From: Mrakia gelida
Lineage: Eukaryota > Basidiomycota > Tremellomycetes > Cystofilobasidiales > Mrakiaceae
DNA length: 64,000 nt
Direction of reading: 5' to 3'
NCBI GenBank assembly: GCA_024345305.1
Contig: BRON01000003.1
Location: forward strand, 1,674,001 to 1,738,000
The position numbers and the translations under genes are program-made. This document shows, piece after piece, positions 49,518 to 52,747 of the stretch (position 1 is the first letter of the stretch; each line of letters opens with the position of its first letter). The notes below the pieces were generated by a model. It was not told the DNA's origin. It did no database searches and saw nothing but the letters and a program-made list of their open reading frames with translations.

Positions 49518-52500
49518 ATGGGTTTCAAGGAGTTCTTTGGAGACCTGATCCCTAAGAAGCAGGAAGATGAATACAATCACGAGGACGACAAACCTTTGTA
49601 CAACCCTTTCAAGGTGAGCGAGCGAGCCGGAGGGGAGGAGGAGGTCGAGTGGAAACGAGAGGTCCGAGTTCGTCTCTTTTTCGCTGACTCGAACACTTTC
49701 TTATTCTCGGACATGAACAGATCTTTCGGTCAGTGTTCTGTTGTTGCTGGAAGACGTGTGGAGAGACGAGGAGGGAATCGTTTCAATACTGACTCTCGCT
49801 CTCTCGTTTTGACCTTCCCAGCTTGATGACCCCTTTCGGTGAGTCTTTCTCGCGCTGATTTCGACTTCGACGACCCCTCGCTGACTTCAATTTTTTTCTT
49901 GGCTCTCTCTAGCATGGCTGATGTACGCTAGTGGATTGTGAGTCTCCTTCGTTGACTATCGTCGGATGCGGGAAGAGGACGAGAGAGGGCTGACCGTCGA
50001 CTCGTCGTTTCGAACTTCTTCAGCTTCGCCTGGACGATGGACGCCTGGGACTTCTTCTCTGTCTCGTTGACCGTCCCACTCCTGGCCGAACAGTTTGGGA
50101 AGAACACCAGCGATAGTGAGTTTTGACGCTGTCTCTCCTCGACGAGTTCTTTTCGAAGCTGACCCGTCTTCGTTTTTCAGTCGTGAGTTTTGACGCGCTC
50201 GCTCCTCGACCAGTCTCCCCGTCGCCCAAGCATACAAGACTGACCACCTTCGAACATCACACTCATCTCCTCTGATATGTAGACAACGTGAGTCCGTCTC
50301 CCTTGCTCGTTGGGAAGGACTCGAGCTCCAGAGAGCTGAACCCGTTTCCTCCCGCGTGTTTGTTTTCCTTTCTTCTTTGTAGCTCTATCACCCTGACTCT
50401 TCTCTTCCGATCCCTGGGAGCTGTTCTTTTTGGACTCGCTGGAGATAGATACGGAAGGAAGGTTCGTGCTAGACCTCTCTCTCCCCTCTCGCTCCTCTCG
50501 AAGCTGATCGTTCGTCCTCGTCTCGTTTCACAGTGGACGTTGGTTGTCAACTTGCTCATCGTCACCTGCCTTCAAATCGGTAGTGGATTCGTCGAGACCT
50601 TCCCTCAGTTCCTTGCTGTCCGATCGCTATTTGGTATTGGGATGGGAGGAATCTGGTGAGCTTCAAGTCCTTTCCTCGAGCTCTTCGCCCTCCTCGACGC
50701 GTCGTCCTGATTTTCATCTCTTTCTCCAGGGGTCAATCCGCTGCCACTGCTATGGAGAACGTTCCCGTCCGAGCTCGAGGACTCATGTCCGGTATCCTGC
50801 AGCAAGGTTACGCCATGGGATACCTTTTCTCAGCGTGTGTCAACCTCAGTGAGTTGGTCTGTCTCTCGCGTCGGCGCACGGACGCGAACTCGATCTGACG
50901 TCTCTCTTCTTCTGGTCTTCAGCCCTCGTCGAGACCTCTCCTTCGACCTGGCGAGTCCTCTTCTGGATGGGAGCAGGATTGTCGTTCGCTGCTGCTGTCT
51001 TCCGAGCCTGTCTCCCTGAGTCGTCTCAGTTCCTCCAAGCCCGAGGTACGTCCCTTCACTACCTTCTCGCTCACATACCAGTCTCGATCAGGGATGCACG
51101 CTGACGAGCTCCGATCTCGTTTCTTCTCTCGCAGCCGAGGCTCGAGAGTCAATCGCTCGTGGCGAAGTTCAAGAGGACCACAAATCCAAGGCGTTCATGA
51201 AAGAGCTGGGGATCATGCTCAAGACTAATTGGCTCCGGTGCATTCATGCCGTCTTACTCATGACTGGGTTCAACTTCCTCTCGCACGGATCCCAGGATTG
51301 TGAGTATCGTTTTCCGATCTCGACGACTGCTCGTTTTCGCTCCTCGCTCGTGCTCACCTTTTTCTCTCTCGTTCTCCTCAGTGTATCCCACCTACCTCAA
51401 GACCACGAAAGGATTCACCGCTCATCAGGCCACGGTCGCTACTAGTAAGTATTGCCTCTCTTTCCCTCTTTTCTGCGACCGCAGACTCGACCTGACAACC
51501 TCGTCGCGTCGCTCCCGTTTCCAGTCATCGGAGTGAGTCGCCTTTCCTTCCCAAACGTCCTTAGGGCACGACTCTGACTCACTTCCTATCTCTCAGAACT
51601 GTGGAGCCATCTGTGGAGGAACTATCGCTGGATATCTCTCTCAGTTCGCCGGACGTCGATTGACTATGATCTGCGTGCGTTCCTTTTCCCCCTCCCCGAC
51701 CGACGCTTCCTCCTTCCTCGACTCCCACTGAACCTCTCTCTTCCTTCTCTCACAGTTCATCCTCCTCATCGGTGCCTTCAGTGAGTCCTTGTGTCGTTCG
51801 AGGCCCGTCTTCGCTTCCGTCTTCGACGCGTCACGGTCTGACCTCCTTTCGTCTTCCCCTACTCAGTCCCCCTCTGGATCCTTCCCAACGGATTCTCGAA
51901 GCTCGCCGCCGGAGCGTTCTGCATTCAGTTCGGAGTCCAGGGCGCTTGGGGAGTCATTCCTATCTACCTCAACGGTTCGTTTCTTCACTCCTCCTCTCGC
52001 CGGTCGACTCTCGATGACCTCTCTCATTCCCTTTCCTCGCCCTCAGAGATCTCCCCTCCCGCTTTCCGAGGAACCTTCCCTGGAGTTGCCTACCAGATGG
52101 GAAACATGGTACGTCGTTGCCATCTTCAACCTTTTTCGGTTCTCTCGCACGACTCAGTCGCTGAACAAACTTCGTCGCTTGTCTTCGCAGGTTTCGAGTG
52201 CCGCCGCTCAAATCGAAGCCACTGCTGGAAAGACTCTCAAGACTCAACTGAACAAGGCTGGAGTCATCACCATCGTTCCTGATTACGCCAAGATCCAAGC
52301 CATCCTGTACGTTTCTAGTTTCTCACCAGCGAGCGAGGTGGCTCGACGCGTCGTCTCTCCTCGCCTCTTCTTCCCCTTCACTGACTCGTTTCTCTCTCGT
52401 CTCCCTTTCCCCCCTTCCCAGGATCGGAGTCGTCGCCATCTGGACCATCGCTATGATCCTCCTCGGAGGTACGTCTCGTCCTTTTCTCTTCTCTTTCTTC

Positions 52501-52747
52501 GTCTCTCTCTCTCGAACTGACCTTCCCTCCCTCCTTTCGTTCCTTTCGCCTCAAAGGGGAGAACCACGGAGCCCACTTCGAGCGAAGCAAAGTCGCCTTC
52601 GAAGGAGGAGCTGGAGCTCTCGCTCCTGCCGACGTTCGCTTCGCTGCCGGAGACTTCTCTGGAGATGGGAAGGCGGAGATGGAGCATGTCGAGGGTGGAT
52701 TGGGCTCGGACGTCGAGAAGGGTCCTGGAGCGAAGAACATCGTTTGA
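49518..52747 (+). CDS. JEN1: Jen1-type monocarboxylate/proton symporter
   Basis: This MFS transporter of the SHS family takes up lactate, pyruvate or acetate at the plasma membrane. MGFKEFFGDLIPKKQEDEYN is the cytosolic N terminus. Helix I reads LMYASGFFAWTMDAWDFFSV. TLTLLFRSLGAVLFGLAGDR and RYGRK give the MFS loop motif. FLAVRSLFGIGMGGIWGQSA and RGLMSGILQQGYAMGYLF follow. FNFLSHGSQDLYPTYL fits the Jen signature NxxS/THxS/TQDxxxT. LWILPNGFSKLAAGAFCIQF and IPIYLNEISPPAFRGTFPG lie further on. The C-terminal tail is acidic and soluble and ends GPGAKNIV-stop. The gene has an extreme exon pattern: successive small exons of 8, 17 and 25 nt near the 5' end, then 2 and 5 nt, and later 8 and 25 nt, all needed for the conserved frame. 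Confidence 0.93.
49721..49728 (+). other. 8-nt micro-exon in the JEN1-like gene
   Basis: ATCTTTCG lies between acceptor AACAG and donor GTCAGT. It joins PFK to the 17-nt exon at 49822-49838 as PFKIFRLMTPFAWL. Skipping it would put the following exons out of frame. Confidence 0.78.
50181..50182 (+). other. Apparent 2-nt micro-exon (TC) in the JEN1-like gene
   Basis: After the exon ending GATA at 50115 the conserved frame needs two bases before ACAAC. TC at 50181-50182 has a strong acceptor (TTTTTCAG) and a strong donor (GTGAGT). Using TC and ACAAC gives DITTSITLTLLFRSLGA, matching the family; omitting TC breaks the frame. The introns on both sides begin with the same GTGAGTTTTGACGC. Confidence 0.65.
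50283..50287 (+). other. 5-nt micro-exon (ACAAC) in the JEN1-like gene
   Basis: ACAAC lies between acceptor TATGTAG and donor GTGAGT. It supplies the Thr-Thr codons of SDITTSITLTLL and the phase needed by the exon starting at 50383. Confidence 0.7.
51526..51533 (+). other. Second 8-nt micro-exon in the JEN1-like gene
   Basis: TCATCGGA lies between TTTCCAG and GTGAGT. It joins as ACTA|TCATCGGA|AACTGT to give ATIIGNCGAICGG, part of a conserved membrane helix. Confidence 0.78.

What the first reader, a model, noticed from the sequence alone, without database searches (positions are those of the whole stretch)
50101..50400. Apparent 2-nt exon between two introns with duplicated 5' ends
The Jen1 frame across this site needs GATA | TC | ACAAC | CTCTATC to give DITTSITLTLLF. 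TC has a strong acceptor and donor. Both flanking introns start with GTGAGTTTTGACGC and then diverge slightly (CTGTCTCTCCTCGACGAG versus GCTCGCTCCTCGACCAG). This looks like a tandem duplication of an intron start that created a near-zero-length exon. An exon of 2 nt is at or below the reported limit for exon definition, so stepwise or recursive splicing may be at work.
Basis: partly seen in the sequence, partly recalled or inferred. Interest (0 to 1): 0.85.

Follow-up and report, generated by a model that had tools for sequence, protein, structure and literature searches.

The report
Two-nucleotide exon in a fungal transporter
A transporter gene of a yeast related to Mrakia seems to need an exon only two letters long, probably spliced in consecutive steps; exons that small are already known in other organisms and appear again elsewhere in this genome.

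Summary
The gene at 49518-52747 (+) is a Jen1-type carboxylate transporter in 21 exons (516 aa), 89% identical to a Mrakia frigida protein. Between exon 5 (ends GATA, 50115) and exon 8 lie introns of 65, 100 and 95 nt separated by exons of 2 nt (TC, 50181-50182) and 5 nt (ACAAC, 50283-50287). Of 3,055 GT-AG chains only the one using TC gives the conserved DITTSITLTLLF; a wider search of 237,621 chains agrees. Skipping TC shifts the frame to an early stop. Consecutive removal of the two introns is inferred, not shown. The introns share their first 32 nt (28 of 32), the closest of 16,836 intron-start pairs, but the likeness starts at the splice site and stops at nt 32: copying of an intron start is likely, whole-unit tandem duplication is not supported. 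It is not unique: homology supports two more 2-nt exons, two 1-nt exons and exons of 4-5 nt elsewhere in this genome, although pattern counts for exactly 1 or 2 nt show no excess. One-nucleotide exons are in print for Cryptococcus, Fusarium and plants. No transcript and no relative's DNA was available.

The parts
49518..52747 (+). Jen1-type carboxylate/H+ symporter gene, 21 exons, 516 aa; exon lengths 96,8,17,25,92,2,5,79,122,119,123,165,63,8,78,25,108,62,116,47,191
Evidence: hand-built model, all 20 introns GT-AG; best relative 89% identical over 97% (Mrakia frigida; database names there: monocarboxylate/H+ symporter, carboxylic acid transporter); Pfam Sugar_tr and MFS_1.
50024..50115 (+). 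exon 5, 92 nt, ends ...AACACCAGCGATA (phase 1)
50116..50180 (+). intron 5, 65 nt: GTGAGT donor, CTGAC 22 nt from the end, T-rich tract, CAG acceptor
   Evidence: donor 10.8 and acceptor 9.5, where 17 other introns of the gene score 3.0 to 10.7 and -5.8 to 14.1 left out one by one
50181..50182 (+). exon 6, 2 nt (TC), completes the Ile codon A|TC
   Evidence: sole chain of those enumerated that gives the homologous peptide
50183..50282 (+). intron 6, 100 nt: GTGAGT donor, ACTGACC, weak TAG acceptor
   Evidence: donor 7.6, acceptor 1.8
50283..50287 (+). exon 7, 5 nt (ACAAC)
50288..50382 (+). intron 7, 95 nt
   Evidence: donor 8.4, acceptor 10.6
50383..50461 (+). exon 8, 79 nt, CTCTATCACCC... (SITLTLLFR...)
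50116..50147 (+). first copy of the shared 32-nt intron start
   Evidence: 28 of 32 identical to 50183-50214
50183..50214 (+). second copy of the shared 32-nt intron start

Best explanation
TC at 50181-50182 is a 2-nt coding exon that completes an isoleucine codon of a Jen1-type transporter. Shown by sequence: both flanking introns are complete by themselves (donor, branch-point-like CTGAC, acceptor), and the conserved peptide needs exactly TC plus ACAAC. Inferred: each short intron is recognised by intron definition, and the two are removed one after the other, because a U1 snRNP on the second donor would overlap the first acceptor. Either order leaves usable sites: removing intron 5 first gives GATATC|GTGAGT, removing intron 6 first gives CAG|TCACAAC. 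Origin, inferred: one of the two neighbouring introns arose beside the other with copying of an intron start (32 nt), in a lineage with extreme intron density, and selection on the protein keeps the two bases.
For: Exhaustive chains: 3,055 GT-AG chains (up to 3 introns of 45 nt or more), 190 open and in frame, 5 without indel, 1 gives the peptide. With GC donors, introns down to 30 nt and up to 4 introns: 237,621 chains, 14,759 open, 26 of equal length with intact upstream flank, 1 of these gives ITT. Conservation in the 120 listed homologues (of 4,892 hits): residue 80 is I 106, L 9, V 3, M 2; residue 81 T in 119; residue 82 T in 107. Mrakia frigida P0001 reads TTDITTSITLTLLFRSLG. Skipping TC ends the protein after 102 residues, skipping ACAAC after 101, retaining intron 5 after 82, retaining intron 6 after 110. 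Splice-site scores good except the intron 6 acceptor. Same kind of exon supported elsewhere in this genome: 2-nt CG (L030), 2-nt TG in an E(z)-like gene (L057), 1-nt A in a Siw14-like phosphatase gene (L059), 1-nt T in a WSC-domain gene (L058), 4-nt TATC (L039), 5-nt CGACT in a GH35-like gene (L031).
Against: No RNA data. No DNA of a relative was reachable (the genome tool holds no relatives of this genome; metagenome scans were capped at 0), so conservation of the exon structure is untested. The intron 6 acceptor (GATATGTAG) is weak (1.8). Pattern matches for exactly 2 nt are not in excess genome-wide (14 against 15 in the reversed control), so the case rests on the protein. A base error in the assembly cannot be checked here.
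Confidence: 0.87

Rival explanations
1. Another splice path keeps the frame without a 2-nt exon, for example exon TCTCCCC (50214-50220) giving SDISPSITL, or a 20-nt exon from 50181 with a GC donor at 50201 giving SDIVSFDALTTSIT.
For: Both are open and in frame; 90 of the 109 wide-search chains that reach [ILVM]T..ITLTLLFR do so without the TC exon.
Against: The first needs donor GTCGCC (score -9.5) and breaks T81 (T in 119 of 120) and T82 (107 of 120); the second needs a GC donor and inserts 6 residues where none of the 24 homologues displayed has an insertion. None of the other chains keeps both length and upstream flank and gives ITT.
Confidence: 0.05
2. Sequencing or assembly error, or a pseudogene: the real genome has the two bases attached to a neighbouring exon, or the frame is not used.
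For: No reads available; the two intron starts are alike, which can confuse assembly.
Against: The copies differ at 4 of 32 positions and have unrelated tails, unlike a collapse artefact; all 21 exons join in one open frame of 516 codons that matches homologues.
Confidence: 0.05
3. The 5' similarity of the two introns is convergence on common intronic words, not copying (a rival for the origin only, not for the exon).
For: GACGCG-type words are frequent in this window (GACGCGTC 34 against 1.9 expected), and GTGAGTTTTGACGC occurs at 8 places in the genome, two of them here. There is no significant similarity past nt 32, and a global alignment does not put this pair among the 8 best of 190.
Against: Best of 16,836 pairs of intron-like starts; the runner-up pair lies before similar coding sequence, apparently in two related genes of the window.
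Confidence: 0.25
4. Stwintron or zero-nucleotide recursive splicing proper: intron 5 sits inside the donor of an outer intron.
For: Two nearly abutting introns, sequential removal likely.
Against: The two bases between the introns belong to the mature frame; intron 5 does not interrupt the GTGAGT of intron 6, and after its removal the donor lies 2 nt downstream of the junction, not at it.
Confidence: 0.03

Closest known systems
1-nt exon of Fusarium CYP621A (PMC12940212; parts 1 and 2 of 3 of the text read)
   Same: fungal ultra-small exon inferred from frame and a conserved motif, flanked by complete short introns
   Different: theirs is 1 nt, found in 20 orthologues and backed by RNA reads in two species; this one is 2 nt, in a transporter, beside a 5-nt exon, without RNA evidence
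Exons 'as small as 1 bp' in Cryptococcus neoformans var. grubii (PMC3990503; section 9 and passages read)
   Same: intron-dense basidiomycete yeast; RNA-seq based statement
   Different: no individual exon is described in the parts read
APC11 1-nt exon of Arabidopsis (PMC4674806, passages read) and conserved plant 1-nt microexons (PMC8831610, passages read)
   Same: frame-restoring; the APC11 authors also propose intron definition combined with one-after-another removal
   Different: plants; confirmed by RNA reads or RT-PCR
Small P450 exons of Phanerochaete chrysosporium, shortest 6 bp (PMC1184071, passages read)
   Same: basidiomycete genes with many tiny exons
   Different: larger; predicted from the genome
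Stwintrons (starts of abstracts in listings only)
   Same: abutting fungal introns removed consecutively; some have similar halves
   Different: a splice signal is split; here both introns keep complete signals and exonic bases lie between

Membership tests
ultra-short microexon (15 nt or less) | internal exon of that length flanked by two complete introns | tested here: met
   (intron 6 acceptor weak)
ultra-short microexon (15 nt or less) | bases required in the mature reading frame | tested here: met
ultra-short microexon (15 nt or less) | present in the mRNA | not testable with these tools
   no transcript data held
recursive splicing (zero-nt ratchet point; definition recalled) | acceptor directly followed by a donor | tested here: not met
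   TC lies between them
recursive splicing (zero-nt ratchet point; definition recalled) | introns removed in consecutive steps | not testable with these tools
   inferred from steric reasons only
stwintron | inner intron interrupts a splice signal of the outer one | tested here: not met
   donor of intron 6 is intact GTGAGT
introner-like element | many near-identical intron copies across the genome | tested here: not met
   only the self match for 182 nt of this region

The most novel reading that the evidence does not exclude
The site is a snapshot of intron birth: a 32-nt intron start was copied from one intron to its neighbour, beginning exactly at the splice site, which gave three introns within 7 coding bases and made a 2-nt exon, in a genome where exons of 1-5 nt recur in several genes.
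Probability: 0.35. Interest if true: 0.6.

Novelty: new member of a known kind. Interest (0 to 1): 0.42.

Why it matters
It suggests that genes of this intron-dense lineage carry exons of 1-5 nt that gene finders may miss, so annotations may be wrong at such places. It also offers natural substrates, pairs of short introns 1-2 nt apart, for testing how a spliceosome handles an acceptor and a donor that can hardly both be occupied. The shared intron start gives a testable case of local intron gain.

Tried and rejected
Rejected: introner-like element (self match only). Rejected: whole-intron or 67-nt-unit tandem duplication (at lag 67, 35 of 67 match overall; tails rank 161 of 190, upstream 3 of 20). 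Rejected as evidence: genome-wide pattern counts for exactly 2 nt (14 against 15 control) and 1 nt (19 against 16). For 0-10 nt there is an excess (224 against 43), but the control is the pattern read backwards, which does not keep the enrichment of donors, and of the 99 places printed 67 have exons of 6-10 nt.

Other candidates: of 14 two-nt matches I read the context of six including this one. L030, L057 and this one are supported; L048 looks untranslated; L056 is unresolved; L060 looks like plain coding sequence; eight were not read. Of 19 one-nt matches I read three: L058 and L059 supported, L049 ambiguous (another acceptor also keeps the frame); 16 not read. L058 and L059 each have one alternative single-intron path, which deletes 4 and 2 residues. 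For L057, 3 of 716 chains kept the cysteine spacing asked for; the other two insert residues and use non-consensus sites; its alignment to EZH1/2 has a 4-residue gap at the joint, and Pfam found only the CXC domain, which ends at the joint. L036 (3 nt) can be skipped in frame and 51 of 13,929 chains matched a loose pattern; its support is that 115 of 118 BLAST rows are ungapped over the first 30 columns. L050 (3 nt) was left open. L051 (5 nt) was aligned to phytases but its chains were not enumerated.

Literature: 10 searches. 'microexon' with Phaffia and with Mrakia gave 0 papers each; the library is incomplete. Not scanned: the virus and prokaryote contig collections, as unsuited to a fungal gene. 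No structure was predicted.

Full report
What the gene is. The window lies in a genome of 34.9 Mb in 25 contigs. The gene at 49518-52747 encodes a 516-aa Jen1-type carboxylate transporter in 21 exons; all 20 introns are GT-AG and 64-115 nt long. Its best protein match is from Mrakia frigida (89% over 97%), the next from Phaffia rhodozyma (64%), so the organism is very likely a Mrakia-like yeast of the Cystofilobasidiales (inference). Phaffia and Mrakia are said to have among the highest numbers of introns per gene in fungi (PMC5103461, passages read). Seven of the 21 exons have 25 nt or less: 2, 5, 8, 8, 17, 25 and 25.

The site. GATA | intron 5 (65 nt) | TC | intron 6 (100 nt) | ACAAC | intron 7 (95 nt) | CTCTATC gives SDITTSITLTLLFR. 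Introns 5 and 6 hold CTGAC 22 and 43 nt from their ends. The donors of introns 5-7 score 10.8, 7.6 and 8.4 on a matrix from the gene's 17 other introns (those score 3.0-10.7 when left out one by one); the acceptors score 9.5, 1.8 and 10.6 (others -5.8 to 14.1). The intron 6 acceptor is thus weak.

Is TC needed? I listed every GT-AG chain of up to three introns of 45 nt or more: 3,055 chains, 190 open and in frame, 5 without indel, one with the homologous peptide. With GC donors, introns from 30 nt and up to four introns: 237,621 chains, 14,759 open, 26 of equal length with the upstream flank intact, and of these only this one gives ITT. In that wider search 109 chains reach [ILVM]T..ITLTLLFR, 90 of them without the TC exon, but with inserted, deleted or changed residues upstream. 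Among the 120 listed homologues (of 4,892 hits) residue 80 is I, L, V or M in all 120 and residue 81 is T in 119. Mrakia frigida P0001 has the same peptide; how its DNA is arranged could not be seen. Omitting TC gives a stop after 102 residues.

Chance. A YAG-T[A/C/T]-GTRAG arose in 35 of 20,000 shuffles of the interval, and with an upstream CTRAY in 7 of 20,000. On both strands of the real window the pattern occurs twice, once with the branch-point-like site, which is this place.

The duplicated starts. The first 32 nt of introns 5 and 6 match at 28 positions. Among 184 intron-like GTGAGT starts from the window and fetched loci (16,836 pairs) this pair is the closest, 22 of 26 after GTGAGT; next is 19, a pair on the window's minus strand followed by similar coding sequence, apparently two related genes. 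So common descent is likely. But the likeness begins at the donor (3 of 20 match upstream) and ends at nt 32 (tail rank 161 of 190). Copying of an intron start fits; a simple tandem duplication of the whole unit does not. The direction of copying is unknown. GACGCG-rich words are common in this window, which leaves room for convergence.

Not alone. A pattern of CTGAC, acceptor, 0-10 nt, GTGAGT occurs 224 times in the genome against 43 for the reversed pattern; for exactly 2 or 1 nt there is no excess (14 against 15, 19 against 16). Reading context and testing homology nevertheless supported further cases. CG in an SGNH-like gene (L030): 16 of 20 homologue rows keep the H[FY]xxG[PQ] spacing, one has a residue more, three lack the stretch, and one of 102 chains fits. 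TG in an E(z)-like gene (L057), aligned with EZH1/2 chains on both sides of the joint, with a 4-residue gap there. A in a Siw14-like phosphatase gene (L059), ungapped over 66 residues with At1g05000. T in a WSC domain (L058): 75.8 bits with, 36.2 without; the alternative acceptor gives 44.0 against 56.5. TATC in an MFS transporter gene (L039): 1 of 289 chains and homologues. CGACT in a GH35-like gene (L031): 1 of 136 chains and solved relatives. ATGAT in a phytase-like gene (L051).

How it probably works. The introns are short, which favours intron definition (established knowledge, recalled). Only two bases separate the acceptor of intron 5 from the donor of intron 6, so both introns can hardly be committed at once; removal one after the other, in either order, leaves proper sites. 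The same view was put forward for the 1-nt exon of Arabidopsis APC11 (passages read). This step is inferred.

What is known. One-nucleotide exons are in print for plants, Fusarium CYP621A and, without named examples in the section read, Cryptococcus neoformans. The present exon is therefore a new member of a known kind. Its extras are a 5-nt neighbour, three introns within 7 coding bases, and the shared intron starts.

Noticed in passing
L058 (C1:2338905-2338943), L059 (C9:1376580-1376624): Two candidate 1-nt exons (T in a WSC-domain gene, A in a Siw14-like phosphatase gene) supported by homology.
   Followed up: partly
L030 (C1:1696084-1696126), L057 (C2:2270725-2270764): Two further candidate 2-nt exons (CG in an SGNH-like gene, TG in an E(z)-like methyltransferase gene).
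   Followed up: partly
L031, L036, L039, L051: Candidate exons of 5, 3, 4 and 5 nt in a GH35-like gene, two MFS transporter genes and a phytase-like gene.
   Followed up: partly
window, both strands: GACGCGTC is strongly over-represented (34 against 1.9 expected); it also stands inside some introns of the gene studied.
   Followed up: no
window about 17206 and 19504, minus strand: Two introns with similar starts followed by similar coding sequence, apparently in related neighbouring genes.
   Followed up: no
P0122 (Mrakia frigida), aligned to L039: This deposited protein shows a 7-column gap just after the residues encoded around the 4-nt exon of L039, as might come from a missed microexon.
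   Followed up: no
P0250, P0253, P0254, P0255, aligned to L030: Four homologues of the SGNH-like protein stop at LFGE or IFGE in the alignment, perhaps truncated gene models.
   Followed up: no
L039 protein: After two Mrakia frigida proteins, many of the best named matches of this MFS transporter look like Ascomycota at about 55-59% identity (grouping recalled); horizontal transfer is possible.
   Followed up: no
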